Source of the DNA: Roseitalea porphyridii
GTDB taxonomy: Bacteria > Pseudomonadota > Alphaproteobacteria > Rhizobiales > Rhizobiaceae
Assembly (NCBI RefSeq): GCF_004331955.1
Contig: NZ_CP036532.1
Coordinates: 1,178,001-1,242,000, forward strand
DNA length: 64,000 bases
Direction of reading: 5' to 3'
The notes below the pieces were generated by a model that did not search any database, had not been told where the DNA came from, and saw only the letters and a program-made list of their open reading frames with translations. Positions 37,561 to 57,068 of this stretch are shown piece by piece (the stretch's first letter is position 1; each line of letters begins with the position of its first letter). The position numbers and the translations under genes were made by a program.

Positions 37561-37725
37561 GTTCGATGCCTTCTGATCGTGCGGCCTTTTCTCCCGAACG
37601 AAGGGATGCGCTATGGGACAGGCATTCAACGGCAGCGCATGCCGGGACGCCCTCTGGCGGGTGTATGCCAATCCGTGCGACGCGCACGGTATCGAACGCC
37701 GAAACCACGCGGTGGAGAGCGTGAC

Positions 37726-40045: not shown

Positions 40046-40057
40046 GATCGAGACCCA

Positions 40058-41392
40058 ATGAGCCAGGCCCGTCCCAAAGTCCGCACCGAGCCCGTCCAGT
40101 CGGCGACATTCTCCAAGGCGGTGAACGCGGAGATCCGCCGCGCGGCCGAAACAGGCATTTATGACATTCGCGGCGGCGGATCGAAGCGGCGCGTGCCGCA
40201 TTTCGACGACCTGCTGTTCCTCGGCGCATCGATCTCCCGCTATCCCCTGGAAGGGTATCGCGAAAAGTGCGCAACGAACGTGACGCTCGGTACGCGCTTC
40301 GCCAAGACGCCGATCGAACTGGCGATCCCGATCACCATCGCGGGCATGAGCTTCGGCGCCCTTTCGGCCCAGGCCAAGGAGGCGCTGGGACGCGGCGCGA
40401 CGATCGCGGGAACGTCGACGACGACCGGCGATGGCGGCATGACCGAGGAGGAGCGCGGCCATTCGAAGACGCTGGTCTACCAGTATCTGCCGTCCCGCTA
40501 TGGCATGAACCCGGACGACCTGCGCCGCGCCGATGCGATCGAGGTGGTCGTCGGCCAGGGCGCAAAGCCGGGCGGCGGGGGCATGCTGCTCGGCCAGAAG
40601 ATCACCGACCGGGTCGCCGAGATGCGCGACCTGCCCAAGGGGATCGACCAGCGCTCGGCCTGCCGGCATCCGGACTGGACCGGGCCGGACGATCTGGAGA
40701 TCAAGATCCTCGAACTGCGCGAGATCACGGGCTGGGAGAAGCCGATCTACATCAAGGTCGGCGGCGCGCGCCCCTATTTCGACACCGCGCTTGCGGTCAA
40801 GGCGGGGGCGGACGTCGTCGTGCTGGACGGAATGCAGGGCGGCACGGCGGCGACGCAGGATGTCTTCATCGAGCATGTCGGCCAGCCGACGCTGGCCTGC
40901 ATCAGGCCCGCGGTCCGGGCGCTGCAGGAACTGGGGATGCACCGCAAGGTCCAGCTTGTCGTCTCCGGCGGCATCCGCACCGGCGCCGATGTGGCCAAGG
41001 CGCTGGCGCTGGGGGCCGACGCGGTCTCGATCGGCACCGCCGCGATGGTCGCGCTTGGCGACAACGATCCCAGATACGAGGACGAGTACCGCGCGCTCGG
41101 CACGACCGCCGGCGCCTATGACGACTGGCACGAGGGACAGGATCCCGCTGGCATATCGACGCAGGATGCAGAGCTTGCCGCACGGCTCGATCCGGTGCTG
41201 GGCGGCCGGCGGCTGGCCAACTATCTGGGGGTCATGACGCTCGAGGCACAGACCATCGCGCGCGCCTGCGGCAAGAGCCATGTCCACAATCTCGAACCGG
41301 AGGATCTGTGCGCGCTGACCATAGAGGCGGCCGCCATGGCCCGGGTGCCGCTCGCCGGCACCGACTGGATTCCGGGACAGACGCCGATTTGA
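40058..41392 (+). CDS. mgsC: N-methylglutamate synthase subunit C-like FMN subunit (GlxD)
   Basis: 444 residues. FMN-binding TIM barrel of glutamate synthase: ITIAGMSFGALSAQAKEALG, TGDGGMTEEERGHSKTLVYQ, GQGAKPGGGGMLLGQKITDR, VVLDGMQGGTAATQDVF, VSGGIRTGADVAKALALGAD. Near the C-terminus only scattered Cys (ARACGKSHVHNLEPEDLC) remain in place of the full 3Fe-4S ligand set of GltB. Makes N-methylglutamate by transferring methylamine from gamma-glutamylmethylamide or glutamate plus methylamine. Specificity inferred from operon. Confidence 0.87.
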   Translation: MSQARPKVRTEPVQSATFSKAVNAEIRRAAETGIYDIRGGGSKRRVPHFDDLLFLGASISRYPLEGYREKCATNVTLGTRFAKTPIELAIPITIAGMSFGALSAQAKEALGRGATIAGTSTTTGDGGMTEEERGHSKTLVYQYLPSRYGMNPDDLRRADAIEVVVGQGAKPGGGGMLLGQKITDRVAEMRDLPKGIDQRSACRHPDWTGPDDLEIKILELREITGWEKPIYIKVGGARPYFDTALAVKAGADVVVLDGMQGGTAATQDVFIEHVGQPTLACIRPAVRALQELGMHRKVQLVVSGGIRTGADVAKALALGADAVSIGTAAMVALGDNDPRYEDEYRALGTTAGAYDDWHEGQDPAGISTQDAELAARLDPVLGGRRLANYLGVMTLEAQTIARACGKSHVHNLEPEDLCALTIEAAAMARVPLAGTDWIPGQTPI

Positions 41393-41420
41393 GAGCGCGC
41401 TAGCACAAGGAGAGCACCCC

Positions 41421-42728
41421 ATGACCCAGAGCCTGACGGACTTCGCCAAGGAGCATGGGGTGAAATACTTCCTGGTCTCGTTCACCGACCTTTTCGGCGC
41501 GCAGCGGGCCAAACTGGTTCCGGCGGCCGCGATCGGCGCGATGGAAGCGGACGGCGCGGGCTTTGCCGGCTTTGCCGCCTGGCTGGACATGACACCGGCC
41601 GACCCGGACGTTCTCGCCGTGCCCGATCCCGCTTCGGCGGTGGCTTTGCCCTGGAAGCCGGACGTTGCATGGGTCGCGGCGAACTGCACGATGGAGGGCG
41701 AGATCGTCGCCCATGCGCCGCGCAACGTGCTGCGCGCCCAGATCGCGCGGGCCACCGATCGGGGCCTGCGCGTGAAATCGGGCGTCGAAGCGGAGTTCTT
41801 CCTGCTCGGCGCGGATGGCTCGGACCTTTCCGATCCGGCCGACACCGCCGTCAAGCCTTGCTACGACCAGCAGGCGCTGATGCGCCGCTACGAGGTCGTC
41901 GCCGAGATCTGCGACTATATGCTGGATCTGGGCTGGCAGCCCTATCAGAACGACCATGAGGATGCGAACGGCCAGTTCGAGATGAACTGGCGGTTCGACG
42001 ACGCGCTCACCACGGCCGACCGGCATTCCTTCTTCAAGTTCATGGTCAAGTCGGTGGCCGAGAAACACGGGTTCCGCGCGACCTTCATGCCCAAACCGTT
42101 CCAGAACCTGACCGGGAACGGCTGTCACGCCCATATCTCGGTATGGGATGCCGCCGGTGAGACGAACCTGTTCGCGGACGAAGCCGGCGAGACAGGCCTG
42201 TCCGATCTGGGCCGGCACTTTCTGGGCGGCATCATCGCGCACGCCGCCGCACTGACCGCGATCTCCAATCCCACCGTCAATTCGTTCAAGCGGATCGCCG
42301 CGGCGGGCACCGCATCGGGGGCGACCTGGGCGCCCAACGCGATCAGCTGGTCGGGCAACAACCGCACCCACATGGTGCGCGTGCCGGAGGGTGGACGCTT
42401 CGAACTGCGCCTCGCCGATGGCGCGGCCAACCCCTATCTGTTGCAGGCCGCCATCATCGCCGCTGGCATCGAGGGTATCGACGCCAAGGCCGACCCGGGC
42501 GAGCGGCTCGACTTCAACATGTATGCCGAGCCGCACAAGGCCAAGGATGTCGCCAAGCTGCCGGTCAACCTGCACGACGCGCTGCGCCTTCTGGACGGGA
42601 ACAAGGCCCTGCGCGCGTCGCTGGGGGCGGAGTTCGTCGATGCGTTCGTCAAGCTGAAGACGCAGGAATGGCAGACCTATCTGTCCAAGCTGACCGACTG
42701 GGAGCGCGAGACGTATCTCGACGCCTGA
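41421..42728 (+). CDS. gmaS: Gamma-glutamylmethylamide synthetase / type III glutamine synthetase (GmaS/GlnT)
   Basis: 435 residues, with AAGGAG before the ATG. Glutamine-synthetase motifs: SGVEAEFFLL, NDHEDANGQFEMNWRF, KPFQNLTGNGCHAHISVWD (the ATP-loop His), NRTHMVRVPEGGRFELRLAD. The short GlnT-type chain, in an operon with split glutamate-synthase subunits, is the hallmark of GmaS, which ligates methylamine to glutamate with ATP. GlnT of rhizobia is a close alternative. The four Mgd (sarcosine-oxidase-like) genes normally next to it are missing in this window. Confidence 0.85.
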   Translation: MTQSLTDFAKEHGVKYFLVSFTDLFGAQRAKLVPAAAIGAMEADGAGFAGFAAWLDMTPADPDVLAVPDPASAVALPWKPDVAWVAANCTMEGEIVAHAPRNVLRAQIARATDRGLRVKSGVEAEFFLLGADGSDLSDPADTAVKPCYDQQALMRRYEVVAEICDYMLDLGWQPYQNDHEDANGQFEMNWRFDDALTTADRHSFFKFMVKSVAEKHGFRATFMPKPFQNLTGNGCHAHISVWDAAGETNLFADEAGETGLSDLGRHFLGGIIAHAAALTAISNPTVNSFKRIAAAGTASGATWAPNAISWSGNNRTHMVRVPEGGRFELRLADGAANPYLLQAAIIAAGIEGIDAKADPGERLDFNMYAEPHKAKDVAKLPVNLHDALRLLDGNKALRASLGAEFVDAFVKLKTQEWQTYLSKLTDWERETYLDA

Positions 42729-43087
42729 AGGTCCCCGATCGCACGGTGCGGCAGACCGGCCCGTGCCGCTGCTGGATTGCCATTGCCGCGGGAAGCCGTG
42801 AAATTCGCTCCGATCACCTCCCAAGTGCGGCTGTGGCGCCGTCACCGTCGCGCCGTCTTGCTCCCTGGCCCCCGATCGCCATAATCGCCCGTGAGGGCCG
42901 CGGCCTGTCGCGCTGGGGTGCGGTTGCCGGTTCCCCGGCGAAAACCGCGATGGTTCCATTTCGGAGAGCGTCCGATGTTCCGCAAAGGGTCAACGGGATC
43001 GGTAGCGAGGCGTGGCGGGGCCATTCCGACGAACAAAGCGCGGCCGGTGGGCCGGTCATGCATGGCACGTCTGGGTAGGGCGCGGTG
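42729..43087. other. Intergenic region, nothing clear
   Basis: 359 bases between gmaS and the GntR/LacI-type regulator. GC-rich with weak hairpin potential just after gmaS (GCACGG...CCGTGC) that lacks a T run. No gene, promoter or repeat that I can support. Confidence 0.4.
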
Positions 43088-44179
43088 ATGCGGCAGAACA
43101 CGCTCGACAAGATCGACAGGATCCGCGCCCGGCTGGAAGAGCAGATCGCCGAGGCCAGTCCGGGGGACCGGCTGCCGACGGTCAAGGCGCTGATGCGTCA
43201 GCACCGGACGGCGCAACGCACGGTCGAAGCGGCATTGCGGCCGCTGCTGGAAGCCGGTCGCCTGCAGGCCAGGCCCGGTGTCGGCCTCGTCGTGCCGGGC
43301 GCGGAGGCCGCCATGGAGGAAGACGCCTGGGAGGGCGATCTTCTGGTCCTCTACCGGATCTCCGAGAGCCGGCTTGCCCGGTCGGTCCTGTTGGAGATGG
43401 AGCAGCGTCTGAAGCTGCGCGGCCGCACCGTCCTGCAGATCGGCTATTCGAGTGAAGCCCAGGCGCTCGACCTGCTCGCCCGGATGGGTCGGTTCAAGGC
43501 GTGCCTGATCCAGATCCATTTCGAGATCGTCTCGATCGACTTTCTTGCCGCCCTGCAGAGACACGCCCGAGCGATCATCGTCGACGGCGTTTCGGCCGTC
43601 GGCATCAATGCCGATGCCATCGGCACGAACTGGCGCGAGGCGCTGTCGATCGCGTTCCGTACGCTGCAGGCCCATGGCCATACGCGAATCGGCTTCCTCA
43701 CCTCCGGACACGAGGCGCGCCAGATCGCCATGGCGCGGCGCGAGTTCCAGATGCTGTCGGGCTGGCTGCCCGAGGCCGACGCGAACTGGCTGATCGAACT
43801 GGACACGCTGCCCGGCGCGACGCAGATCGCCGACATCACCGCGGCGCTCGGCCCGCTGCGCGACGATAACGGCCGGCTGCCCTTCACCGCGCTGATCGCG
43901 TGGGGCATCGTCGAGGGCTTCGTGCTCGAGCGCGCGCTCACCGATCTCGGCCAGAGCATCGGTGAGGAACTCAGCGTCCTGCTTCTGGGAAGCACCGATT
44001 TTCCGTCCGAGCACGTGCGCCGCTTCGACGTCATCGGCAACTCCCAGCGCGAGAAACTCGACACGTTCGAGCGCGTCATCATCGATCGGATCGACGACCG
44101 CGGCGACGCGTCGCGCGTCCATTATCTGCCGATCAGCCATGTCGTGCATGGCAGTATCGTGCGGCTCGACCCGGATTGA
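43088..44179 (+). CDS. GntR-type regulator with LacI-like ligand-binding domain
   Basis: 363 residues from ATG 43088 (GTG 43085 possible). The N-terminal winged helix lacks a classic first turn but keeps PGDRLPTVKALMRQHRTAQR and EAALRPLLEAGRLQARPGVG. Residues 85-360 look like a periplasmic-binding-protein/LacI sensor: LLVLYRISESRLARSVL, FRTLQAHGHTRIGFLTSGHE, LIAWGIVEGFVLERAL. A sugar-responsive repressor by design. It lies directly upstream of, and codirectional with, the sulfatase/sugar operon; an inverted repeat overlaps its stop codon. Confidence 0.8.
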   Translation: MRQNTLDKIDRIRARLEEQIAEASPGDRLPTVKALMRQHRTAQRTVEAALRPLLEAGRLQARPGVGLVVPGAEAAMEEDAWEGDLLVLYRISESRLARSVLLEMEQRLKLRGRTVLQIGYSSEAQALDLLARMGRFKACLIQIHFEIVSIDFLAALQRHARAIIVDGVSAVGINADAIGTNWREALSIAFRTLQAHGHTRIGFLTSGHEARQIAMARREFQMLSGWLPEADANWLIELDTLPGATQIADITAALGPLRDDNGRLPFTALIAWGIVEGFVLERALTDLGQSIGEELSVLLLGSTDFPSEHVRRFDVIGNSQREKLDTFERVIIDRIDDRGDASRVHYLPISHVVHGSIVRLDPD

Positions 44180-44214
44180 GTATAACCAAGATTGTAGCCA
44201 AATCCGTACTCAAT
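44175..44214. promoter_or_regulatory. Inverted repeat between regulator and sugar operon
   Basis: ATTGAGTA (44175-44182) and TACTCAAT (44207-44214) are perfect inverted arms 24 bases apart, in an AT-rich island 39-78 bases before the GTG of the first operon gene. The left arm contains the regulator's stop codon. Candidate operator pair. Confidence 0.5.
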
Positions 44215-44252
44215 TAGCGTGCCCGCATCGGTTTCGGTGTTCGGCGGACAAA

Positions 44253-45527
44253 GTGCTACAGAAATCTCCCACCCAGGCCACAATCGGGGTCTCGATCATC
44301 GGAGCGGGTGAACGCGGCATCTACTATATCGGCACGCGGATGGCCGAGATCGCCGCCGATACCGGCTTCCGGATCGTCAACGTCCACGACACACTGGCGG
44401 ATCGGGCGCGCTATGCCGCCGAGCATCTGAACGGCGTCTACGCCGCCGGCGGGTTTTCCCACACGGTTTCGCCGGTCGCCGATCTTCAGGCGGCCATCTG
44501 CGATCCGGCCGTCGATCTGGTCGTGGTGACGACCCATACCGACGCGCACCGCACGCCCGTCGAGATCGCCGCGCGGGCGGGCAAGCGCGTCTATCTCGAC
44601 AAACCGATCGCGGTCACGCTCGAGGACGCGAGCGCGATCCTGGAGGCGGAGGCGCTGTCGGGCGAGCCGGTGATGATGGGTTTCACCCGCCGCTACGAAC
44701 GCCCGTGGATCGAGGCCGTCGACATCGCCCGGAAAGGCCGTATCGGCGATCCGCAGATGATCCTGTTGAGGTCGGTCATTCCCTACACGCGCTACCTGCA
44801 GCTGTGGCATCGCAACCAGGCCAAGTCGGGCGGTGCCATCAACGACAAGTGCTCGCACCATTTCGACGTGCTCAACTGGATCGCCGGCAGCCCTGCGGTC
44901 TCGGTCTCGGCCATCGGCGGGCGCAGCGGCATCTTCAAGCCCGATCCGGGCGCCCCGCAGCGCTGCAGCGAATGCGCGCGCCAGTGCCCCTATCGCCGCC
45001 ATCACACGCTGGTCGACAAGTTCGAGGGCGTCGGCCGGGTCGCAAACGACAGCTGGACCCATGCCGACCGCATCGAGGACCGCAACGACAATTGCGTCTA
45101 TCTGCCCGGCGCCGACATCGACGATCACGCCATCGTTTCGGTAACCTACGAGAACGGCATGACGGCGTGCCTGTTTTTCACCATCTTCGGTCCCTGGGCG
45201 CCCGATCAGGAAACGCTGGAGATCGTCGGCTCGTCCGGCCGGCTCCGCATGGAGCGCCATTCCGGCGAGATTGACCTCGTCTCCGCGCACGGTCACAGGA
45301 ACGAGACGATCCGTTTCGCCGATCCCGATCGCGGGTCGACCCATTTCGGTGCCGACCTCGAACTGGTTCGCACAATGCGCGGCTTCATGGATGGCGACGC
45401 TCCGCCGGTCGGGCCGAAAGACGGGCTGATGTCGCTGCGCATGGTGCATGCCGCCCTTTGGTCGCTGCGCAACAACGGACAGCCGATCAATCCGGCGCTG
45501 GCCATGGACATGGTGGAGGCCGCCTGA
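44253..45527 (+). CDS. Gfo/Idh/MocA-family oxidoreductase with Cys cluster
   Basis: 424 residues from GTG 44253, the first in-frame start before the Rossmann motif (SIIGAGERGIYYIG). YLDKPIAVT at about 115 carries the family EKP/DKP lysine, and SGGAINDKCSHHFDVLNWIA the active-site D..H. An unusual insert RCSECARQCPYRRHH (about 240) holds three Cys in a CxxCxxxC spacing and could bind metal. NAD(P)-dependent oxidation of a sugar or cyclitol. First gene of the eight-gene operon; the next gene overlaps by one base. Confidence 0.88.
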   Translation: MLQKSPTQATIGVSIIGAGERGIYYIGTRMAEIAADTGFRIVNVHDTLADRARYAAEHLNGVYAAGGFSHTVSPVADLQAAICDPAVDLVVVTTHTDAHRTPVEIAARAGKRVYLDKPIAVTLEDASAILEAEALSGEPVMMGFTRRYERPWIEAVDIARKGRIGDPQMILLRSVIPYTRYLQLWHRNQAKSGGAINDKCSHHFDVLNWIAGSPAVSVSAIGGRSGIFKPDPGAPQRCSECARQCPYRRHHTLVDKFEGVGRVANDSWTHADRIEDRNDNCVYLPGADIDDHAIVSVTYENGMTACLFFTIFGPWAPDQETLEIVGSSGRLRMERHSGEIDLVSAHGHRNETIRFADPDRGSTHFGADLELVRTMRGFMDGDAPPVGPKDGLMSLRMVHAALWSLRNNGQPINPALAMDMVEAA

Positions 45528-47089
45528 TGCCAGCCAGCCTGCCAGAGCGCCTGACACCGATGGCCGCCGAGCGCGGTGTGCGCGCCTATTACGGCGACAT
45601 CCACAATCACTGCGCGCTCTCCTACGGCCATGGAAGCCTTGATGGGGCGCTCAGGCGCGCCGCGCTGCAGCTCGACTTCGTCTCGATCACCGGCCACGCG
45701 CATTGGCCGGACATGCCCGTCGACGAGCCGTCGGTCGCCCACATCGTCGACTTTCACGAAAAGGGCTTCGCCAAGCTGCGCGCCGGCTGGCACGACCATT
45801 TCGGCACGCTCGCCGCCCATGACGACGAGGACGGGTTCTGGGTGTTTCCGGGATACGAGATCCATTCGTGCGCCGATGGCGACTACACGATCGTCTACGC
45901 CGACCTCGATCCGGATCCGATCGTGCTGGCCGACACGCCGGCCGAACTGAAGGCGCGGCTCGGCGAGGCCAAGAACGGGCGCGCGCTGACCTTCCCCCAC
46001 CATATCGGCTACCGCCGGGGCGCCCGCGGCATCAATTGGGACACGTTCGATCCGGACCTGTCGCCGTTCGTCGAGATGTTCTCGATGCACGGCTGCGCCG
46101 AAGCCTCCGAAACGCCGCGCGGCTATCTGCACTCGATGGGGCCGGTCGACGGGCGCTCGACCATGGCCGAAGGGCTTCGACGCGGCATGCGGTTCGGCGT
46201 CGTCGGAAACACCGACCATCACAGCGGCTTTCCCGGCTCCTACGGTCACGGCCGGATGGCCGTTTATGGCCAACCCGGCGGTCGGGACGCCATCTGGGCC
46301 GGATTGAAGCACCGCCATACCAACGCCCTGACCGGCGACAACACCCACCTTCTGATTACGACCGGCGATGCGATCCAGGGCGATGTCGCCGCACCATCGA
46401 AGAACACGGTGCTGGCTGTGGAGGCGGTCGCCGGCGGGTTCATCGATACGATCGACATTATCCGCAATGGTCGCCTTTTCGATCGCATATCGCCCGATCT
46501 GGCGCCCGCGCCGGTCGATCCGGGCACTCCCGACACGGTCGAGACGGTTCTCTATCTCGAACTGGGCTGGGGCGCGCGGCGGACGGCCCATCACTGGACC
46601 GGGCGGATCGCCATCGAGAACGGGTCGATCGAGCAGGCGACGCCACGCTTTCGCGGGCCGGAGGTGGTCTCTCCGCTCGAAGGCGGCGACAACGCCCATC
46701 CGCTGCCGCAGCTCTGGCGTGACGAGGACGCGGTCGGCTTCGCGGTCACTGCCGACGCCAACCCCAACAACGTCACGTCCGCCACGCAAGGCTTCGCACT
46801 GCGCATCAAGGCGAGCCCCGATGCCATGATCCGGGCCGAGCTGAGCGGCATGCGGATCGACGTGCCGGTGACCCGGCTCGTCGAAGGCGCGCTCAGCGGA
46901 AATCTTGGCCCGATCGACACGCCCGCCTTTCGCTTTCACATGCTGCCGCAGGCGCATCAGTGGCAGTGGGCCGGAACCATCGATCTGGGCGAGACCGGGG
47001 CGGGCGAAAGCGTCTATGCGCGCCTGACCCAACGCGACGGCCAGATGGCCTGGACGTCACCGATCTTCTTTGGAGACGCAATGAACTGA
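45527..47089 (+). CDS. PHP-domain metal-dependent hydrolase
   Basis: 520 residues; ATG overlaps the previous stop (TGATG). PHP metal ligands: GD24-I-H26-N-H28 (YYGDIHNHCALSYGHG), GH57AH59W, PHHIGYRRG and GNTDHHSGFPG. The first 290 residues are the PHP barrel; the rest is beta-rich (ENGSIEQATPRF, LRIKASPDAMIRAEL) like DUF3604-type proteins. No signal peptide, so cytoplasmic. Probably hydrolyses an ester or glycoside-like bond in the imported compound; the actual substrate is unknown. Confidence 0.82.
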   Translation: MPASLPERLTPMAAERGVRAYYGDIHNHCALSYGHGSLDGALRRAALQLDFVSITGHAHWPDMPVDEPSVAHIVDFHEKGFAKLRAGWHDHFGTLAAHDDEDGFWVFPGYEIHSCADGDYTIVYADLDPDPIVLADTPAELKARLGEAKNGRALTFPHHIGYRRGARGINWDTFDPDLSPFVEMFSMHGCAEASETPRGYLHSMGPVDGRSTMAEGLRRGMRFGVVGNTDHHSGFPGSYGHGRMAVYGQPGGRDAIWAGLKHRHTNALTGDNTHLLITTGDAIQGDVAAPSKNTVLAVEAVAGGFIDTIDIIRNGRLFDRISPDLAPAPVDPGTPDTVETVLYLELGWGARRTAHHWTGRIAIENGSIEQATPRFRGPEVVSPLEGGDNAHPLPQLWRDEDAVGFAVTADANPNNVTSATQGFALRIKASPDAMIRAELSGMRIDVPVTRLVEGALSGNLGPIDTPAFRFHMLPQAHQWQWAGTIDLGETGAGESVYARLTQRDGQMAWTSPIFFGDAMN

Positions 47090-47136
47090 CGCGTCTCCTT
47101 CAACTGCCCACGTTTCACCAAAAGGGAGGATTCCAG

Positions 47137-48402
47137 ATGAAACGACACCTTGCATTTCTCACCGCGCTGGCCGGCGCCACGGTGCTTGCCGGTACGGCGA
47201 TCGCCGCCGAGTTGAACATCGTGCACGGCTCGGTCGGTCGAGACCAGGAGATCCTGCGCAGCCAGCTCGACAAGTTCGAGGCGGAGACAGGGCATACCGT
47301 GACGATCGTGTCGATGCCCGAATCGACCACCGACCAGTTCGCCCAGTACAAGCTGTGGCTGGCCGCCCAGTCGTCCGACATCGACGTCTACCGGCTCGAC
47401 GTGATCTGGGCGCCGCAGATCGAGACCCACTTCATCGATCTCAAGCCGCATGTCGAGGACATCATCGACGACTACGTCCAGGGCGCCATTGAAAGCCAGA
47501 TGGTCGGCGACAAGCTCGTCGCACTGCCCATGTTCCTGGGTGCGCCGGCGCTCTACTACCGTTCGGACCTGCTCGAAAAGCACGGTAAGGACGTGCCGGC
47601 GACCTGGCAGGAGATGACCGAGACCGCCAAGGCGATCATGGAAGCCGAGCGTGCCGAGGGCAATGAGGACATGTGGGGCTTCGTCTTCCAGGGCGCGGCG
47701 TATGAGGGCCTGACCTGCAACGCGCAGGAATGGATCGCCAGCTTCGGCGGGGGGCGCATCGTCGAGAACGATGGCACGATCGCCATCAACAACCCCAAGG
47801 CTGCCGAGGCGATCAACCTCGCCGCATCCTGGGTCGGCGACATCGCTCCCGATGGCGTCCTCAACTACAAGGAAGAAGATGCCCGCGGCGTCTTCCAGTC
47901 CGGCAACTCGGTGTTCATGCGCAACTGGAACTACGCCTATGCGCTTGGCAATGGCGACGACAGCCCGATCAAGGGCAAGTTCGGCGTCTCCACGCTGCCG
48001 ACGGGCGGCGAGGGCATGGAACCGGCGCACACGCTGGGCGGCTGGCACCTGGGCGTTTCGAAGTATTCGGAGAACCAGGAAGAGGCGATCGAGCTGGTGC
48101 GGTTCCTGAACAATTACGAGAACCAGAAGGAACGCGCCATCGTCACCTCGCGCCCGCCGACCCTGACGGCGGTGTACGAAGATCCCGAAGTCGCCGCCGA
48201 GCAGGAGTTCATCCCGCTGTGGAAGCCGGTCGTCGATGGGGCGCTTCCAAGGCCCTCGGCCGCGACCAAGCGCCAGTACAACGAGGTTTCCTCCGAGTTC
48301 TGGACCGCCGTTCATGACACGATGAGCGGCAAGGGCACGGCCGAGGAGAACCTCGCCCGGCTCGAGGCACGCCTGCAGCGCCTGAAGGGCGCCAACTGGT
48401 AA
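47137..48402 (+). CDS. ABC transporter sugar-binding protein (CUT1 family)
   Basis: 421 residues. Signal peptide about 1-23 (HLAFLTALAGATVLAGTAIA). Mature part is a family-1 solute-binding protein: FEAETGHTVTIVSMPESTTD, QYKLWLAAQSSDIDVYRLDV, PMFLGAPALYYRSDLLEKHG, GGWHLGVSKYSENQEEAIEL. Similar in build to the trehalose/sucrose-binding ThuE. GGGAGG upstream gives the strong translation expected for a binding protein. Periplasmic receptor for the operon's sugar. Confidence 0.92.
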   Translation: MKRHLAFLTALAGATVLAGTAIAAELNIVHGSVGRDQEILRSQLDKFEAETGHTVTIVSMPESTTDQFAQYKLWLAAQSSDIDVYRLDVIWAPQIETHFIDLKPHVEDIIDDYVQGAIESQMVGDKLVALPMFLGAPALYYRSDLLEKHGKDVPATWQEMTETAKAIMEAERAEGNEDMWGFVFQGAAYEGLTCNAQEWIASFGGGRIVENDGTIAINNPKAAEAINLAASWVGDIAPDGVLNYKEEDARGVFQSGNSVFMRNWNYAYALGNGDDSPIKGKFGVSTLPTGGEGMEPAHTLGGWHLGVSKYSENQEEAIELVRFLNNYENQKERAIVTSRPPTLTAVYEDPEVAAEQEFIPLWKPVVDGALPRPSAATKRQYNEVSSEFWTAVHDTMSGKGTAEENLARLEARLQRLKGANW

Positions 48403-48463
48403 GCCGACACTCCCCGCGCGTGGGCCCACGGGCCCGCGCGCAAACCGAACCGGGGACCGAGCC

Positions 48464-49446
48464 ATGAGCCTGACATCGGATGCGGCCGCGACCGGCGCGC
48501 TGACGCCAACCAAGCCCAAGGCCTCACGCCTTTCGCGCGAACGCATCCGCTCGGCATGGCTGTTCCTGGCCCCGATGCTCATCGTGCTGGCCGCGGTGGC
48601 GCTCTATCCGCTCTACCGGACCATCTATTTCAGCTTCACCGATGCCTCGCTCGATCTGCTCGGCGAGGCGCGCTGGGTCGGCTTTCGCAACTATCTGGAA
48701 TATCTCGACTACGGCAACGGCCAGGGCGAGTATTTCGGCCTTCTGGTCGACGCGCGCTGGTGGCGTTCGGTCTGGAACACGGTCTGGTTCGCCGTCGTCT
48801 CGGTCGCCCTCGAAACCGTATTCGGGCTGATCATCGCGCTGGTGCTGTTCAGGAAGTTTCCCGGCCGCGTCTGGGTGCAGGCGGCCGTGCTGATCCCCTG
48901 GGCGATCCCGACCATCGTGTCGGCGCGGATGTGGGCGTGGATGATGCATGACCAGTTCGGCATCCTCAACGACATGCTCGAGCGTGTCGGCCTGATCGAC
49001 ACGCCGATCGCATGGACCGCTTCTCCCGAGACCGCGATGATCGCGGTGATCATCGTCGATGTGTGGAAGACCACGCCCTTCATGGCGCTCTTGATCCTGG
49101 CCGGGCTCCAGATGGTGCCGCAGGACATCTACGAGGCCGCCAAACTCGACGGCGTGCCGCCGTTCCGCCTGTTCCGCAAGGTGACGCTGCCGCTGATCAT
49201 GCCGGCGGTGCTGGTCGCCGTCGTCTTCCGCGCGCTCGACGCGCTGCGCGTCTTCGACATTATCTACGTGATGACGCCGAACACCGATTCGACCCGCTCG
49301 ATGAGCGTGTTCGCCCGCGAGAACCTGTTCGATTTCGACCAGTTCGCCTACGGCTCGGCCGCATCCACGCTGCTGTTCTTCATCATCGCGCTGATGACCA
49401 TCAGCTTCATCTATCTCACGCGCATGAACCTTGAGGGGGACGAGCG

Positions 49447-49450
<4 letters not shown>
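48464..49450 (+). CDS. ABC sugar permease (MalF-type)
   Basis: 328 residues, six transmembrane segments after a charged 25-residue start (SAWLFLAPMLIVLAAVALYP). The EAA loop reads EAAKLDGVPPFRLFRKVTLP near residues 225-245, the ATPase docking site. Forms the channel with the next gene, overlapping it by 4 bases (ATGA). Confidence 0.93.
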
Positions 49451-50280
<830 letters not shown>

Positions 50281-50286
50281 TCCGTC

Positions 50287-51306
50287 ATGGCTTCCGTCGA
50301 ACTTCACAATGTCAGCAAGGCGTTCGGCGCCGTGAAGGTGCTGCACGATGTCAATCTGGCGCTGGAGAAGGGTGAGTTCATCGTCTTCGTCGGGCCGTCC
50401 GGCTGCGGGAAGTCGACGCTCCTGCGGCTGATTGCCGGGCTCGAGGACATCACCTCCGGCGATCTTCTGATCAGCGGCGAGCGCATGAACGATGTGCTTC
50501 CGGCCAAGCGCGGCATCTCGATGGTGTTCCAGTCCTACGCGCTCTACCCGCATATGACGGTGTTCGAGAACATGGCCTTCGGCCTCGAACAGGCAAAGCT
50601 TTCGCCCGACGAGATCAGGAGCCGCATCGCCCAGGCTGCCGAGATGCTGCAGATCAGCGACTACATGGACCGCAAGCCGCGGCAATTGTCTGGCGGCCAG
50701 CGCCAGCGTGTCGCCATCGGCCGCGCGATCACGCGACAGCCGCGCGTGTTCCTGTTCGACGAGCCGCTGTCGAACCTCGATGCGGCCCTGCGCGTCGACA
50801 CGCGGCTGGAGATCGCCGCGCTTCACAAGCGGTTGTCCGATACGACCATGATCTATGTCACGCATGACCAGGTCGAGGCGATGACGCTCGCCGACCGCAT
50901 CGTCGTGCTCAATGCCGGCAATGTCGAACAGGTCGGCACGCCGATGGACCTTTACCACAACCCCGCCTCGCAGTTCGTGGCCGGTTTCATCGGCTCGCCG
51001 CGCATGAACTTCATCACCGGTGCGGTCGCCGACAGGCATGGCGCGGCCGTCTACGGCATCAGGCCCGAACACGTCGATCTCTCCACCGACGGCGGCGACT
51101 GGGGCGGCCGTGTCATGCTGACCGAGGCGCTCGGTTCGGACACGTTCGCGCACGTGCAGACCGAGGAGGCCGGGATGGTCAATGTCCGCCTGCGCGGTTC
51201 GCGCCGGGTGCGCGAGGGCGAGCCCGTGTTCCTGACGCCGCAGACCGAGGCAGCGCACCTCTTCGACGCCGGCGGCAAGCCGATCCGGGTCGCCCGGGCG
51301 GCCTGA
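50287..51306 (+). CDS. ABC sugar-import ATPase (MalK/UgpC type)
   Basis: 339 residues. Walker [10 protein letters not shown] (36-44), Q-loop [20 protein letters not shown], signature [15 protein letters not shown], Walker [17 protein letters not shown], switch His in [10 protein letters not shown], and a C-terminal TOBE/OB region ([15 protein letters not shown]). Energises the MalF/MalG pair. Follows the permease by 6 nt. One atypical residue run, [12 protein letters not shown], replaces the common MN.G.I.Q.G.P. Confidence 0.94.
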
Positions 51307-51308
51307 CG

Positions 51309-52262
51309 ATGATGGCGCCCGCCACCGAAAGCCCCCGTGCGATCCTTGTTCTGGGGAATGCCAATCTCGACGTCATCGTCGGCCATGTCGACAACTGGCC
51401 CGAACGGGGAACGGAATCCTTCTTCCCGCACGGCGATCTGCGCATTGGCGGTTCGGCGGCGAACACGGCGCGCGTGCTGCAGCGACTCGGCGCCCGGTCG
51501 GGCCTCGTGTCGGCGCACGGCGGCGACTTCGCAGGCGCGGCGATCGGCCAGGCCTTTGCGGGCGTGCGCGACCGCGTGGCTTCCCTGGACGGGCCGACCG
51601 GGTTCACGGTCGGCCTGCTCCACCGGCCGAGCGAACGAACCTTCCTGTCATCGGTCGGCCATCTTGACCGGCTCGATGCCGCCTTCTTTCGCAGGGCGCT
51701 CGACGGAGTAGCGCTGGAGGGCGCGCTGGTCCTTCTCAGCGGCGGGTTTGCCATGCCAGCCCTGATCGAAGGCCATCGCGCCCTGCAGGATTTCCTGCGC
51801 GATCGCGGCGCGGAACTGGCGATCGATCCGGGCTGGCCGAACGGCAACTGGACCGACACCGAACTGCGCCAGGCGCGCGCCTGGCTCGCTGCCAGCGACC
51901 ATGCGCTGCTCAACGACAAGGAGGCGGCCGCGATCGCCGGCACCGTGGACCTGGAGGCGATGATCGGCGCTCTGGCTGACGCATTGCCTTACGGCGCCAC
52001 GCTCATCATCAAGCGCGGCCCCAAGGGCGCGATCGCGCACCGGGCCGGCCGGACCATCGAGGTGACGGCGGAAGCGCTCGATCCGGTCGACACGGTCGGC
52101 GCCGGCGACGCCTTCAACGCCGGCTATCTCGATGCGCTCGCAAAGGGCATGTCGCTGCGCCCCTGTCTGGAGCGGGCGGTCACTGTTGCCGGGCACATCG
52201 TGTCCGAGTTTCCGCGCGCCGCATCGCCCATCGACCCCGCACGGCAATCGGAGCCCGCATGA
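51309..52262 (+). CDS. PfkB-family carbohydrate kinase
   Basis: 317 residues. N-terminal GNANLDVIVGHVDNWPERGT and GGSAANTARVLQRLGA match PfkB signature 1. Near the end, DTVGAGDAFNAGYLDALAKG carries the anion hole and catalytic Asp of signature 2. Phosphorylates a hexose, keto-deoxy acid or nucleoside with ATP. Two bases after the ABC ATPase and overlapping the sulfatase, it should act on the desulfated sugar. Exact substrate not readable. Confidence 0.9.
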   Translation: MMAPATESPRAILVLGNANLDVIVGHVDNWPERGTESFFPHGDLRIGGSAANTARVLQRLGARSGLVSAHGGDFAGAAIGQAFAGVRDRVASLDGPTGFTVGLLHRPSERTFLSSVGHLDRLDAAFFRRALDGVALEGALVLLSGGFAMPALIEGHRALQDFLRDRGAELAIDPGWPNGNWTDTELRQARAWLAASDHALLNDKEAAAIAGTVDLEAMIGALADALPYGATLIIKRGPKGAIAHRAGRTIEVTAEALDPVDTVGAGDAFNAGYLDALAKGMSLRPCLERAVTVAGHIVSEFPRAASPIDPARQSEPA

Positions 52263-53662
52263 AACGCAACATTCTGCTGATGATCGCCGACGATCTGGGC
52301 CGCATGACCGGCTGCTATGGCGAACCGGCGATCAGCACGCCGAACATCGACGCGCTGGCCGGGCAGGGTACGCGTTTCGACATGGCTTTCGCCTCGACCG
52401 CATCGTGCTCGGCGAGCCGTTCGGTGATCTTCACCGGCCTGCACACGCACGAGAACGGCCAGTACGGCCTCCACCACGACCATCACCACTTCATGACCTT
52501 CCATCACGTCGAGACGGCGCCGGCGCTCTTCAACGCTCTGGGCTACCTTACCGGCATCATCGGCAAGGTCCATGTCGGCCCGCCATCGGTCTATCCCTGG
52601 ACCGTGCGGGCGGAGAGCGGCACGCGTGACATCGGCTGGGTCGCCGAGCAGGCAGGAGCCTTCCTTGAGACCGCGCGCCACGCGGACAAGCCCTTCTTTT
52701 TGACGGTCGGCTTTATCGACCCGCATCGGGACGCGACGCGGTCCGGATTTGGCAACGACGATTTCGACGACGACGACGAAGAACGCGCGTTCCGGCCCGA
52801 AGACGTCTCGGTGCCGCCCTTCCTGAGCGACCTGCCGGAAGTGCGGCTGGAACTGGCCGAGTACTACCGCTCCGTGCATCGTCTCGACCGGGGCGTGGGG
52901 CGGGTGCTCGCCGCGCTCGAAGCGTCCGGGAAGGCCGACGAGACGCTGGTCGTCTTCGTCAGCGACAACGGGGCGCCGTTTCTCAACTCGAAGACCACGC
53001 TCTACGACGCCGGCGTTCACCTGCCGCTTCTGATGCGCGTGCCAGGGGCGAGGGCCGGCGTGGCCAACCCCAACCTCGTCTCGTTCATCGACATCCTTCC
53101 GACCATGCTCGACTGGGCCGGCGCGCCGGCGGCCGAAAGCGCCCGGCGGGGTCGTTCGCTGCTGCCGATCATGGAGCACGAAACGCTGGAAGACGACTGG
53201 CGGCTCGTCTTCGGCTCGCACACCTTCCACGAGATCACCAACTACTGGCCGACGCGGTTCGCCCGCACGCCGCGCTACAAGTACCACCGCAACGTTGCCT
53301 GGCAGCTCGACTTCCCGTTCTCCGGCGACCTTTACGGCTCGCTCTCCTGGGAGGGGATGCGCAACGCCAACCCGTCCACGATCGGCCGCCGCCCGCTGAA
53401 GGCCTATGTCCGCCGTCCGCCCGAGGAATTGTACGATCTCGTCGACGATCCGTTCGAGGTGAACAATCTGGCCGATGTCCCCGAACACCAGCGCACGCTG
53501 CACGAGTTGCGCGCCCGCACCGAAGCTTGGCAGAGGGAGACGGACGACCCCTGGCTCTATCGGGATGGCATGTCGGTGCGCGCCATCGCCCATCATCTGG
53601 AGGCCGGATTGAAGCTGCCCGACCGGTTCGATTTCGACCCGGACGCGCCGGGCAACCGCTAG
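52259..53662 (+). CDS. Sulfatase resembling N-sulfoglucosamine sulfohydrolase, cytoplasmic
   Basis: 467 residues, no signal peptide (MKRNILLMIADDLGRM). Active-site C50-S-A-S-R54 for formylglycine. Metal ligands D11, D12 and D236-N237 (VSDNG). K103 and H105 in GIIGKVHVGPPSVYP, D154-P-H156. The stretch HENGQYGLHHDHHHF, then GIIGKVHVG...YP, parallels human sulfamidase (QNGMYGLHQDVHHF; GIIGKKHVGPETVYP), recalled from memory. Likely removes sulfate from a nitrogen or oxygen of an imported sugar. Needs formylglycine-generating enzyme from elsewhere. Last gene of the operon; 4-base overlap with the kinase. Confidence 0.88.
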   Translation: MKRNILLMIADDLGRMTGCYGEPAISTPNIDALAGQGTRFDMAFASTASCSASRSVIFTGLHTHENGQYGLHHDHHHFMTFHHVETAPALFNALGYLTGIIGKVHVGPPSVYPWTVRAESGTRDIGWVAEQAGAFLETARHADKPFFLTVGFIDPHRDATRSGFGNDDFDDDDEERAFRPEDVSVPPFLSDLPEVRLELAEYYRSVHRLDRGVGRVLAALEASGKADETLVVFVSDNGAPFLNSKTTLYDAGVHLPLLMRVPGARAGVANPNLVSFIDILPTMLDWAGAPAAESARRGRSLLPIMEHETLEDDWRLVFGSHTFHEITNYWPTRFARTPRYKYHRNVAWQLDFPFSGDLYGSLSWEGMRNANPSTIGRRPLKAYVRRPPEELYDLVDDPFEVNNLADVPEHQRTLHELRARTEAWQRETDDPWLYRDGMSVRAIAHHLEAGLKLPDRFDFDPDAPGNR

Positions 53663-53841: not shown

Positions 53842-55008
53842 TTATCCGCCGATCCGCGGAAGGATCTGCGGCGCGCGCGCCGACAACAGCTCGGGCCCGT
53901 TCGCACGCAGCACGATATCTTCCTCGTGAACGAGGAAGCGTCCGGGCACGACCTCGGCCGACGGCTCGAGCGTCAGCACCATGTTCTGTCGCAACACGGT
54001 ATCGTCGAGGGGTGAGAACGAGGGCCATTCGGTGAGGCTGATGCCAAGCCCGTGGCCAAGACGGCCGCGTGCCGGTTGCACGCCCCGCCGGAGCAGGTCG
54101 GCGGTCATGAACGCGTGCACATCGCTCGCGCGCATGCCCGGGCGCAGCGTTTCGAGCGCCGCCTCGGTGGTCAGCCAGAGCGCGTCCTGGGTCTTGCGGA
54201 TCGCGTCCGTCACCGGTCCGATCGCGAAGTTCCGGTCGAAGTCGCAGAAATAGCCATCGCGCACGGCACCGGTATCCAGCATCAGCACGTCGTCCGTCGT
54301 CAGCGGCTCGGGCGATGCCGGCGAGATCACATCGGCGTAGCCCTGCCGGCCGGCGCCGCCGGCGAGATAGCCGACCCAGTCCGCGCCCTCCTCGAGCAGC
54401 GCGATCTGGAAGTCGCGGAACACGCTCTCAAGTGCACGTCCGGCCTGCGCGAACTCCGGGACCCGCGCGAACGCCCGATCCGCGATCTCGCAGACGGTCC
54501 GGAGCTTGTCGATTTCCGCCTCGGACTTGATCTCGCGCACGCGCCTGACCTCCGCCGTCGCATCGACGAAGCTGCGCGGCACGATGCGCTCGGCCACACG
54601 CGCGAAATCGGCCATCGGCATGCGCAGATGGGTCTCGGATCCCATCGGCACGCCGATCCTCGCCTGCGATCGCGACAGGCTGCAGATCACGTCGACCAGC
54701 AGCGTCACACCGTCATCGGCCGGGTCGGGCGCGTTCCAGGTGCGAATGTCGCCGATCCATGTGCGCGCCATCAGTTCGGCCCCGATCGCCGGGATCACGG
54801 CCACGGGCTCGCCCGCCTCCGGTACGACGACGAACCAGGGTCGGGTGGGGCTTTCCCAGAAACGGGTCAGAAAGCCCGTCGCGTAGAACACGTCCGCCGG
54901 CGTCGTGAGCAGCAGCGCGGCCAACCCTGTTTCCGCCATCTCCGTCTGCAGGCGCCTGATCCGGCCCCGATACTCGTCCGCGCCGAAGATCAGCGATCGT
55001 TCAGCCAT
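53842..55008 (-). CDS. M24-family (Xaa-Pro dipeptidase-like) metalloenzyme
   Basis: 388 residues from the ATG at 55008, which overlaps the upstream gene by 8 bases. N-terminal creatinase-like domain, then the pita-bread fold with ligand Asps in LMLDTGAVRDGYFCDFDRNF, His in LGHGLGISLTEWPSF, and Glu in VLTLEPSAEV and VHEEDIVL. All five metal positions are plausible, so active. Cleaves Xaa-Pro dipeptides, or as a creatinase relative another C-N bond. Paired with a PLP ammonia-lyase-like enzyme, suggesting catabolism of an amino-acid derivative. Confidence 0.9.
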   Translation of the reverse strand: MAERSLIFGADEYRGRIRRLQTEMAETGLAALLLTTPADVFYATGFLTRFWESPTRPWFVVVPEAGEPVAVIPAIGAELMARTWIGDIRTWNAPDPADDGVTLLVDVICSLSRSQARIGVPMGSETHLRMPMADFARVAERIVPRSFVDATAEVRRVREIKSEAEIDKLRTVCEIADRAFARVPEFAQAGRALESVFRDFQIALLEEGADWVGYLAGGAGRQGYADVISPASPEPLTTDDVLMLDTGAVRDGYFCDFDRNFAIGPVTDAIRKTQDALWLTTEAALETLRPGMRASDVHAFMTADLLRRGVQPARGRLGHGLGISLTEWPSFSPLDDTVLRQNMVLTLEPSAEVVPGRFLVHEEDIVLRANGPELLSARAPQILPRIGG

Positions 55009-56047
55009 CCTCGGCGCCTTCGCTGAGGATCGCGAGCACCCGGGCATCGGCCCCGGGGTCGAGGCCCGCAAGCAGCGCCGCGATCCCGGCTCCACCCGAT
55101 GGCGTGGAGGCGAGATCGAGCTCTTCGAGGACAGCGACCGCCGCGTCCGCTTCGGCGTCGCTGATCGTCACGAACAGGTCGGCATCCCGCGACAGGCCGG
55201 CAAGGGCGATCAGCGATGGCTCCTTGCAGTCGAGCCGCCCCATGTTCGACACGGCGCCTTCGGTGATCACCGGAGCGCCGGCGGCAATGCTCGCAAACAG
55301 GGCAGGCGCAGCGTCCGGTTCGACGATGACGATCTGCGGATCATCGCCCCAGACCAGGCGTGTATGGGCTGCAACCGCGCCCGCCAACCCGCCGACGCCG
55401 GCCTGCAGCACGATGTGGGTCGGCGGCTGCGGCATCTGCTCGACGGCCTCGGCCGCCATCTGCAGATACCCCTCCATCACCCGGCGCGGCAACTCGAAAT
55501 AGCCCGGCCAGGAACTGTCCGACAGGAGGGTCCAGCCATTGGCCTTGGCGGCGTCGGCGGCCGCCGCCATGCTCGCCTCGTAGTCCGCGCCCGAGCGCAC
55601 GACCCGCGCGCCCTTCGCCTCAAGCCGCGCGGCAAAGGCGGACGGCACCGTTTCGGCCAGGTAGATGACGGCGACTGCGCCAAAAAGGCGGGCGCCGGCG
55701 GCCACCGAAAGGCCGTGATTGCCCGCGCTTGCGGCGACGTAGGTGCGACCCGTCAGAGCTTCGGACCAGGTGTCCTCCCGTACCGCCGCAGCGGCATCGC
55801 GCGCGACGGCGTGCGCCGCGCCGAGCGCCTTGAAGCTGCCAAGGCCCATGCGCCTGCGCTCGTCCTTGAGCCAGATTTCGCCGACACCTGCGCGCGCCGC
55901 CAGTTCAGGTGCGGCAAGCAGGGGCGTCGGCTGGTGAGCCGGGCAAAGCGCCAGAAGCCGGCCAACGCCTCCCGCATCGGGCAGGGGCAGCGGACAATCA
56001 AGATCGATGCCGCGCCCGCGCCACGGATTTCGTTGCACCGTCGGCAC
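55001..56047 (-). CDS. PLP-dependent ammonia-lyase (diaminopropionate ammonia-lyase/threonine dehydratase-like)
   Basis: 348 residues. Fold type II PLP enzyme: cofactor Lys in RRMGLGSFKALGAAHAVARD, ASAGNHGLSVAAGARLFG, glycine loop LQAGVGGLAGAVAAHTRL, and TPSGGAGIAALLAGL near the pyridine. The opening RNPWRGRG and the GSFKALG.....A spacing resemble 2,3-diaminopropionate ammonia-lyase. Eliminates ammonia from an amino acid. Overlaps the M24 gene; 128 nt after the dioxygenase. Confidence 0.85.
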   Translation of the reverse strand: MPTVQRNPWRGRGIDLDCPLPLPDAGGVGRLLALCPAHQPTPLLAAPELAARAGVGEIWLKDERRRMGLGSFKALGAAHAVARDAAAAVREDTWSEALTGRTYVAASAGNHGLSVAAGARLFGAVAVIYLAETVPSAFAARLEAKGARVVRSGADYEASMAAAADAAKANGWTLLSDSSWPGYFELPRRVMEGYLQMAAEAVEQMPQPPTHIVLQAGVGGLAGAVAAHTRLVWGDDPQIVIVEPDAAPALFASIAAGAPVITEGAVSNMGRLDCKEPSLIALAGLSRDADLFVTISDAEADAAVAVLEELDLASTPSGGAGIAALLAGLDPGADARVLAILSEGAEDG

Positions 56048-56175
56048 ATTGCCTCCCTTGCCGCATGGCGATCAGAGCATCCCTTCACATCGATCACGTG
56101 TGGCGCCGCAATTGCAAGCCTGCACGGCCCCGATTGGCGCTTCTGATAAAGGACCGTTGCTCCCGCGCCGGAGGG

Positions 56176-57057: not shown

Positions 57058-57068
57058 GTCGTGTCCTT

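What the first reader, a model, noticed from the sequence alone, without database searches (positions are those of the whole stretch)
43088..53662. Sugar-import operon ending in a cytoplasmic sulfamidase-like sulfatase
A GntR/LacI-hybrid regulator is followed by oxidoreductase, PHP hydrolase, CUT1 ABC importer, PfkB kinase and a sulfatase, mostly with 1-6 nt spacing. The sulfatase has CSASR and local similarity to N-sulfoglucosamine sulfohydrolase but no signal peptide. This implies that an intact sulfated (amino)sugar is imported, then desulfated, phosphorylated and oxidised inside. I know of no described pathway with exactly this gene set.
Basis: partly seen in the sequence, partly recalled or inferred. 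Interest (0 to 1): 0.8.

Follow-up and report, generated by a model that had tools for sequence, protein, structure and literature searches.

The report
Likely sulfated-sugar import and desulfation operon
Some alphaproteobacteria share a gene cluster that probably takes in a sulfated sugar whole and strips the sulfate inside the cell with a bacterial cousin of the human enzyme lost in Sanfilippo A disease; the exact sugar and the way the enzyme is activated are still unknown.

Summary
The operon is real: nine same-strand genes at 43085-53662 (regulator, Gfo/Idh/MocA oxidoreductase, PHP-like hydrolase, four-gene CUT1 importer, PfkB kinase, signal-less sulfatase). Its eight core genes keep one order in 12 of 13 loci that reach far enough (exception L036). 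The sulfatase is no choline sulfatase: human SGSH (sulfamidase) is its best PDB match, 286 bits against 140 for the next enzyme, and both lie in one clade (100/97). N-desulfation of a glucosamine derivative is favoured, not proved. For: ROK kinase plus GlcN-6-P deaminase precede the operon in two relatives; others carry a SIS gene. Against: SGSH's Arg282 is Lys here, SGSH-like relatives sit in polysaccharide clusters, S1_8 includes 2-O-sulfatases. Unexpectedly, all 16 bacterial clade rows lost the proline of the formylglycine motif, and 5 of 13 operon-bearing genomes, including the single-contig window genome, show neither copper-site FGE nor full-score anSME. Import then cytoplasmic desulfation has been proposed before; this gene set appeared in no listing of my searches.

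The parts
43085..44179 (+). GntR-type regulator with LacI-like effector domain (GTG 43085 or ATG 43088)
   Evidence: PF00392 32.3 bits, Peripla_BP_3 24.2 bits, under its cut-off; conserved 50-78% at the head of the operon
44253..45527 (+). Gfo/Idh/MocA oxidoreductase; possibly a sugar dehydrogenase or an NAD-dependent glycosidase
   Evidence: PF01408 and PF02894; Foldseek top hits scyllo-inositol dehydrogenase 6ktj and, within the top 15, GH188 sulfoquinovosidase 8qc6; start GTG by comparison
45527..47089 (+). PHP-like metallohydrolase, distantly CehA/McbA- or DUF3604-like, function unknown
   Evidence: NF038032 38 bits, below cut-off 80; DUF3604 in 8 of 9 family members at E up to 1, best 3.3e-10, the window's own 0.33; invariant HxH, H, E, H, D residues
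47137..48402 (+). CUT1 solute-binding protein; the N-terminus reads as an export signal (by eye)
   Evidence: PF01547 107.6 bits
48464..49450 (+). CUT1 permease 1
   Evidence: PF00528 68.1 bits
49447..50280 (+). CUT1 permease 2
   Evidence: PF00528 55.6 bits
50287..51306 (+). CUT1 ATPase (UgpC/MalK type)
   Evidence: NF008653 452.9 bits, over cut-off 432
51309..52262 (+). PfkB-family sugar kinase
   Evidence: PF00294 121.5 bits; absent in L014, L015 and L026
52259..53662 (+). SGSH-clade type I sulfatase, apparently cytoplasmic, CSASR motif (C50)
   Evidence: human SGSH 4mhx 285.9 bits; tree; active-site residues

Best explanation
A catabolic operon for a sulfated sugar glycoside carrying its sulfate at the 2-position, most likely an N-sulfoglucosamine (GlcNS) derivative. 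The solute-binding protein and CUT1 transporter import the intact sulfated molecule. Gfo and the PHP-like enzyme, present in all 12 complete operons, process the rest of the molecule; I guess NAD-linked cleavage of a glycosidic bond, but only their linkage is shown. The signal-less SGSH-type sulfatase then removes the sulfate in the cytoplasm. The freed (amino) sugar is phosphorylated (PfkB here, ROK in two relatives) and, if an amino sugar, deaminated by a GlcN-6-P deaminase (NagB in those relatives, possibly the SIS protein in others, a NagB-II-like protein elsewhere on the chromosome here) to fructose-6-P. The GntR/LacI regulator responds to an intermediate. Shown: gene content, order, conservation, SGSH clade, start without signal peptide, presence of the deaminase genes. 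Inferred: substrate, N- versus O-sulfate, order of steps, Gfo and PHP chemistry.
For: Human SGSH is the best of 84 PDB sequences matched, 286 bits against 140 for the next enzyme. A tree of 82 rows puts human SGSH, 12 operon sulfatases and three other bacterial proteins in one clade, 100/97; the PDB S1_8A sulfatase is outside. Catalytic and metal residues D11, D12, C50, R54, K103, H105, H156, D236, N237 and the docked-substrate residues H324 (=His368) and D357 (=Asp401) are kept (SGSH roles from PMC4014121, passages read). The core eight genes are in fixed order in 12 of 13 loci that reach far enough. In L014 and L015 a ROK kinase and a NagB lie directly upstream on the same strand; that NagB hits GlcN-6-P deaminase 2bkv with 140 bits, and all 12 PDB sequences matched are named GlcN-6-P deaminase or isomerase. 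A SIS protein follows the ATPase in L022, L025 (frameshifted), L027, L145 and L120, with a remnant in L028 and L146. The window genome holds a NagB-II-like gene (281 bits; curated cut-off 430) close to a NagK-like gene (250 bits; cut-off 370). The three nearest non-operon clade members read as Tat or Sec exported (by eye); operon members start without a signal. A related cassette of CUT1 permeases, Gfo, PHP and an S1 sulfatase exists in a Spirochaeta MAG.
Against: SGSH's Arg282, proposed to orient the N-sulfate, is Lys in all 15 bacterial clade rows that reach it, the window included, and in four further relatives, as in O-sulfatases. Relatives in Catenovulum and Flammeovirga lie in polysaccharide-degradation clusters with rhamnosidases, GH2 and other sulfatases, suggesting O-sulfated algal sugars. 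S1_8 contains galactose- and xylose-2-O-sulfatases (PMC12549532). The characterised Pedobacter/Flavobacterium N-sulfamidase has motif CTPAR (PMC6189696) and could not be compared. ROK+NagB occur only in two genomes of one genus and could belong to a neighbouring cluster. The SIS protein resembles NagB-II only weakly (20 bits). No NagB or SIS gene is in the window's own operon. In L036 PfkB and sulfatase stand apart from the other core genes. Gfo and PHP are not needed for free GlcNS.
Confidence: 0.5

Rival explanations
1. The same import-then-desulfate logic, but the substrate is a 2-O-sulfated neutral sugar or glycoside (for example xylose-2-sulfate or galactose-2-sulfate from algal polysaccharides). 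Kinase and SIS isomerase handle the neutral sugar.
For: S1_8 holds 2-O-sulfohydrolases; Lys instead of SGSH Arg282; relatives in Catenovulum (source given as algae) and Flammeovirga polysaccharide clusters; several host names are of marine genera as I recall them, and Salipiger's record gives the Pacific Ocean; SIS + PfkB also fits isomerase + kinase.
Against: NagB + ROK upstream of the operon in two relatives; S1_8A, assigned as a galactose-2-sulfatase, falls outside the SGSH clade.
Confidence: 0.3
2. Another sulfamate or sulfated metabolite is the substrate (for example a sulfated natural product or osmolyte); the sugar-type genes process a glycosyl part.
For: Gfo and PHP, not kinases, are the constant enzymes of the 12 complete operons; the PHP family has no named function.
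Against: CUT1 importer and kinase are typical for sugars; SGSH-clade placement.
Confidence: 0.15
3. The operon serves an unsulfated sugar and the sulfatase is an inactive or moonlighting passenger, since no maturase is found in the window genome.
For: No FGE and no full-score anSME in G000.
Against: Of the 15 bacterial clade rows that reach all catalytic and metal positions, 14 keep them apart from Arg282 (L046 has His for Asn274); the gene closes all 12 complete operons; 7 of 13 operon-bearing genomes do hold a copper-site FGE.
Confidence: 0.05

Closest known systems
Human SGSH (N-sulfoglucosamine sulfohydrolase, SulfAtlas S1_8; PDB 4MHX)
   Same: Full-length similarity about 39%, same clade, same metal and catalytic residues except one
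   Different: No signal peptide seen, Arg282 replaced by Lys, Pro of CSPSR replaced by Ala or Gly, bacterial catabolic operon
Pedobacter (Flavobacterium) heparinus N-sulfamidase, S1_8, and B. thetaiotaomicron BT4655 (PMC5066984; PMC9067506; passages)
   Same: Bacterial N-desulfation of GlcNS in heparin use (BT4655 predicted, mutant accumulates N-sulfated glucosamine)
Streptobacillus moniliformis GAG importer Smon0120-0123 with predicted cytoplasmic sulfatase Smon0126 (PMC5430744, passages)
   Same: ABC import of sulfated disaccharides, then proposed cytoplasmic desulfation
   Different: Uses GH88 and lyases for chondroitin and hyaluronan, heparin disaccharides bound poorly; no Gfo or PHP gene is named in the passages read (the full cluster was not seen)
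GH188 NAD-dependent sulfoquinovosidase pathways in Roseobacters (PMC10755693, passages)
   Same: Gfo/Idh/MocA-fold enzyme at the entry of sulfosugar breakdown in marine alphaproteobacteria
   Different: Sulfonate, not sulfate; our Gfo is only about 20% identical and its activity is unknown
lambda-carrageenan S1_8A/B/C sulfatases (PMC12549532, passages)
   Same: S1_8, act on the 2-position
   Different: Sequence score half or less of SGSH; act in a polysaccharide cluster whose oligosaccharide breakdown is periplasmic

Membership tests
Type I (formylglycine) sulfatase, S1 | Sulfatase fold and catalytic/metal residues | tested here: met
   PF00884 141.9 bits; residues kept
Type I (formylglycine) sulfatase, S1 | Motif C/S-x-P/A-x-R | tested here: met
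   CSASR in the window; CSGSR in L027, L028, L036, Salipiger and Marinovum DG898 does not fit the pattern
Type I (formylglycine) sulfatase, S1 | A known maturase (FGE or anSME) in the genome | tested here: not met
   G000: only a NirV-like FGE-fold protein without the Cu-site cysteines, anSME model 72.9 of 349 bits; 7 of 13 operon-bearing genomes do have a Cu-site FGE and one more has only anSME
SGSH / S1_8 sulfamidase | Sequence clade with human SGSH | tested here: met
SGSH / S1_8 sulfamidase | Arg at the SGSH 282 position | tested here: not met
   Lys245 in the window, Lys in all 15 bacterial clade rows reaching it and in four further relatives
SGSH / S1_8 sulfamidase | Cleaves the N-S bond of GlcNS | not testable with these tools
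   needs enzyme assay
Choline sulfatase | NCBIfam TIGR03417 above cut-off | tested here: not met
   116.7 of 433.45 bits
Phosphonate monoester hydrolase / PehA | NCBIfam NF045661 above cut-off; closest PDB relative | tested here: not met
   114.4 of 900 bits; PMHs rank far below SGSH
CehA/McbA metallohydrolase (PHP gene) | NF038032 above cut-off | tested here: not met
   38 of 80 bits; no PDB sequence match at E up to 10
GH188/GH109-type NAD-dependent glycosidase (Gfo gene) | Fold and catalytic signature of the family | tested here: inconclusive
   Fold shared with both dehydrogenases and GH188 at equal TM-score; catalytic signature not tested
CUT1 ABC importer | SBP_bac_1, two MalFG-type permeases, UgpC/MalK ATPase | tested here: met

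The most novel reading that the evidence does not exclude
The operon's sulfatase belongs to an SGSH branch that works without FGE or anSME: its motif lost the FGE-recognised proline (CSASR, CSGSR) and several hosts, including this one, show neither maturase. It would be matured by the reported but unidentified third system or act with an unmodified cysteine, in a pathway where a Gfo + PHP pair opens a sulfated aminosugar glycoside.
Probability: 0.22. Interest if true: 0.8.

Novelty: new variant of a known kind. Interest (0 to 1): 0.52.

Why it matters
It points to a route in alphaproteobacteria for using sulfated (amino) sugars without extracellular desulfation, with a bacterial relative of the enzyme deficient in Sanfilippo A disease. 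A bacterial SGSH relative without signal peptide could be a handy tool for studying S-N bond cleavage, including the Arg282Lys question that the SGSH structure paper leaves for future work. The hosts lacking FGE and anSME give testable cases for the proposed third sulfatase-maturation system (Benjdia et al. 2007, seen only as a cited title in PMC6189696).

Tried and rejected
Choline sulfatase and phosphonate hydrolase assignment of the sulfatase: rejected on scores. Acesulfame sulfatase of Shinella as a relative: set aside, it is described as 30% identical to choline sulfatase with a CxPxR motif (passages). Structure of the PHP protein: mean pLDDT 69.7, pTM 0.75, and Foldseek gave only meaningless matches (query-normalised TM at most 0.10), so nothing is concluded from it. 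Gfo model (pLDDT 73.9): fold search cannot separate dehydrogenase from NAD-dependent glycosidase. NirV-like gene beside a NirK-like gene as FGE: rejected, no GGSxxCxxxxCxR site. Radical-SAM/SPASM gene L007 as anSME: 72.9 bits against a cut-off of 349, and three of the five maturase-less genomes have no match at E up to 0.001. PF01182 match in the window genome as NagB: set aside, because its score (181 bits) fits the group of strong hits found in 11 of 13 genomes while the operon NagBs score only about 70 with this model; I take the strong group to be 6-phosphogluconolactonase, a recalled inference not checked by a call. The last genome search was a second FGE test by protein query: 0 of 6 genomes without FGE matched at E up to 1, 5 of 5 controls did; one control match (G300) reads a stop inside, though its shorter match has none.

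Rows dropped or not examined: the tree leaves out L036 and L087 (partial) and L072 (no ORF found), 3 of the 80 loci. One search counts exclude 24 named rows; with the 8 of these that lie outside the SGSH clade added, the +2 residue is P in 59, A in 6, T in 1 and Q in 1 of 67 rows outside the clade, and A in 13 and G in 3 of 16 bacterial clade rows. The four relatives added were placed with SGSH by score only (253-296 bits), not in the tree. Of 6 plasmid records matched I opened 4.
Full report
What is there. The window (G000:C1:1178001-1242000 of a single-contig, 3.54 Mb genome rated 99.99% complete) holds nine co-directional genes at 43085-53662: GntR/LacI-type regulator, Gfo/Idh/MocA oxidoreductase, PHP-like hydrolase, CUT1 binding protein, two permeases, ATPase, PfkB kinase and a type I sulfatase. 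Five of the eight junctions are between -4 and +6 nt; the others are 47, 61 and 73 nt. Upstream ends a glutamine-synthetase-like gene (41421-42728), downstream an opposing M24 peptidase gene (53842-55095).

Conservation. A search of 297 genomes of the order found the sulfatase (E up to 1e-40) in 4, the window's own and one distant relative included, so it is patchy. Two genomes (L014, L015), hits of a genome-collection scan (L021-L029, L036) and two plasmid records (L145 Salipiger profundus, L146 Marinovum algicola) carry close relatives. Of 13 loci that reach far enough upstream of the sulfatase, the window included, 12 keep the order GntR, Gfo, PHP, SBP, permease, permease, ATPase, sulfatase. 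The exception is L036, where PfkB and sulfatase follow unrelated genes; in that genome (G308) a permease, ATPase and SIS gene lie on another contig (L120). L023 and L027 are cut by contig ends but agree as far as they go. Exchangeable genes: PfkB is missing in L014, L015 and L026, 3 of the 15 loci that cover its place; a SIS-domain gene lies between ATPase and PfkB in L022, L025 (frameshifted), L027 and L145, and as a 67-68 residue remnant with both ends and no middle in L028 and L146; L014 and L015 have a ROK kinase and a NagB directly upstream of the regulator.

The sulfatase. Human SGSH is its best PDB match by far (285.9 bits; next enzyme, an S1_8A sulfatase, 140.2). In a maximum-likelihood tree of 82 rows human SGSH, the 12 operon sulfatases and three others (L030 Acidobacteria, L031 Bacteroides-labelled MAG, L046 Bythopirellula) form a clade with 100/97 support. 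Choline sulfatase and PehA models score far under their cut-offs. All residues listed for SGSH catalysis and metal binding are kept in the window's protein except Arg282, which is Lys245 (PMC4014121, passages). That arginine is the one the structure paper proposes for binding the N-linked sulfate, and it is Lys in all 15 bacterial clade rows that reach it and in four further relatives. Sequence therefore supports an SGSH-lineage enzyme but does not settle N- against 2-O-sulfate; published S1_8 members act on both (PMC12549532, passages; PMC5066984, passages). L030, L031, L046, Catenovulum and Flammeovirga members begin with what read as export signals (judged by eye); operon members do not. 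Catenovulum and Flammeovirga members sit in clusters with rhamnosidases, GH2 and further sulfatases, which feeds the O-sulfate rival.

Amino-sugar evidence. The L014 NagB matches 12 PDB sequences, all named glucosamine-6-phosphate deaminase or isomerase, best 140 bits, and NCBIfam glucosamine-6-phosphate deaminase models above 6-phosphogluconolactonase. The SIS protein resembles GlmS/NagB-II-type SIS proteins only weakly. The window genome has no operon-type SIS protein at E 1e-10, but a SIS protein elsewhere scores 281 bits with NagB-II (the next family 139; curated cut-off 430), in a locus with an N-acetylglucosamine-kinase-like gene (250 bits; cut-off 370) and, by eye, a MurQ-like gene. So GlcN-6-P could be deaminated in trans. 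L014/L015 are two genomes of one genus, so this is one evolutionary observation.

Gfo and PHP. They are in all 12 complete operons, whereas the kinases are not. A PHP relative and S1 sulfatases of another subfamily also co-occur in a Spirochaeta MAG (L061: binding protein, permeases, Gfo-type genes, PHP, sulfatase) and in Maledivibacter (L097: what I read as GH4, PHP, PTS, sulfatase, and an opposing radical-SAM gene); these are 2 of the 70 loci outside the operon group, so the link is not general. GH4 and GH188 are NAD-dependent glycosidases that oxidise C3 (PMC10755693, passages), so I suggest, without proof, that Gfo in the operon may cleave a glycosidic bond. The predicted Gfo structure matches scyllo-inositol dehydrogenase and GH188 equally well. 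The PHP model was too poor to use.

Maturation. Type I sulfatases need cysteine changed to formylglycine. In all 16 bacterial clade rows the proline of CxPxR is Ala (13) or Gly (3), and in the four relatives added it is Ala (2) or Gly (2); outside the clade it is Pro in 59 of 67 rows. Of 13 operon-bearing alphaproteobacterial genomes, seven hold an FGE with the copper-site motif (G071, G231, G298, G299, G300, G302, G304) and three an anSME above cut-off (G299, G300, G301). G000, G297, G303, G305 and G308 have neither. A second search with an FGE protein found nothing at E up to 1 in the six FGE-less genomes and hit all five controls. Three of the five are MAGs (the records of L021, L027, L036), G305 is the draft genome of Roseibaca ekhonensis CECT 7235 (record names), and G000 is one contig but may lack a plasmid. 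Weaker radical-SAM matches exist in G000 (72.9 bits) and G297 (147.7 bits). CSGSR also occurs in a genome with FGE (L028, G304), so motif and maturase do not simply go together. Precedents: unmodified choline sulfatase turns over slowly, and a third maturation system has been proposed for E. coli (PMC6189696, passages; the 2007 paper seen only as a cited title).

Comparison and novelty. ABC import of sulfated GAG disaccharides followed by proposed cytoplasmic desulfation is published for Streptobacillus (PMC5430744, passages), and N-desulfation in heparin use is known or predicted in Pedobacter and Bacteroides. Literature searches (25 of 39,563 papers listed; 2 of 2; 20 of 31; 12 of 2,113; 7 of 7) showed titles and abstract openings only, and none described this gene set; the library lacks most subscription papers. 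I rate it a new variant of a known kind.

Verdict. Ordinary parts in a well-conserved combination that I did not find described, with two open and testable points: which 2-sulfated sugar is used, and how the sulfatase is activated in hosts without known maturases.

Noticed in passing
window 38456-42728: Glutamine amidotransferase, GXGXG, glutamate-synthase-like and glutamine-synthetase-like genes with an XRE-cupin regulator (37285-38355): looks like an N-methylglutamate synthase cluster (name recalled; Pfam).
   Followed up: partly
window 53842-58850: Opposing genes: M24 peptidase, PLP-dependent PALP enzyme, intradiol dioxygenase with catechol N-domain, FAD aromatic-ring hydroxylase: an aromatic-degradation neighbourhood.
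   Followed up: partly
L028:8869-9075 and L146:12872-13075: In two Marinovum algicola strains the SIS gene is an in-frame remnant keeping roughly the first 20-24 and last 40-46 residues, between ATPase and PfkB.
   Followed up: yes
window 44964-45095 (Gfo residues 238-281): Four invariant cysteines (C238, C241, C245, C281) in a low-confidence insertion of all 8 aligned Gfo homologues, reminiscent of a metal site.
   Followed up: no
G000:C1:1853972-1854967 (L002, L018, L135): A second cysteine-type S1 sulfatase (CMPAR) of the same genome lies next to CUT1 permease genes, again with no FGE found in the genome.
   Followed up: partly
L061:1984-11332 and L097:4710-13840: CUT1 or PTS transporters, Gfo or GH4-like enzyme, PHP and a different S1 sulfatase together in a Spirochaeta MAG and in Maledivibacter (names partly by eye).
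   Followed up: partly
L145 and L146: In Salipiger and Marinovum the whole operon is on a record listed as a plasmid, which fits its patchy spread.
   Followed up: no
L036 and L120 (genome G308): PfkB and sulfatase stand apart from the permease, ATPase and SIS genes, on different contigs of a MAG: a split operon or an assembly fault.
   Followed up: no
L003:1471-2523 (G000:C1 near 3.266 Mb): FGE-fold protein without copper-site cysteines next to a NirK-like gene (NirV-like; both names by eye and recall); the FGE Pfam model rings above cut-off on it, so family hits alone would wrongly suggest an FGE.
   Followed up: yes
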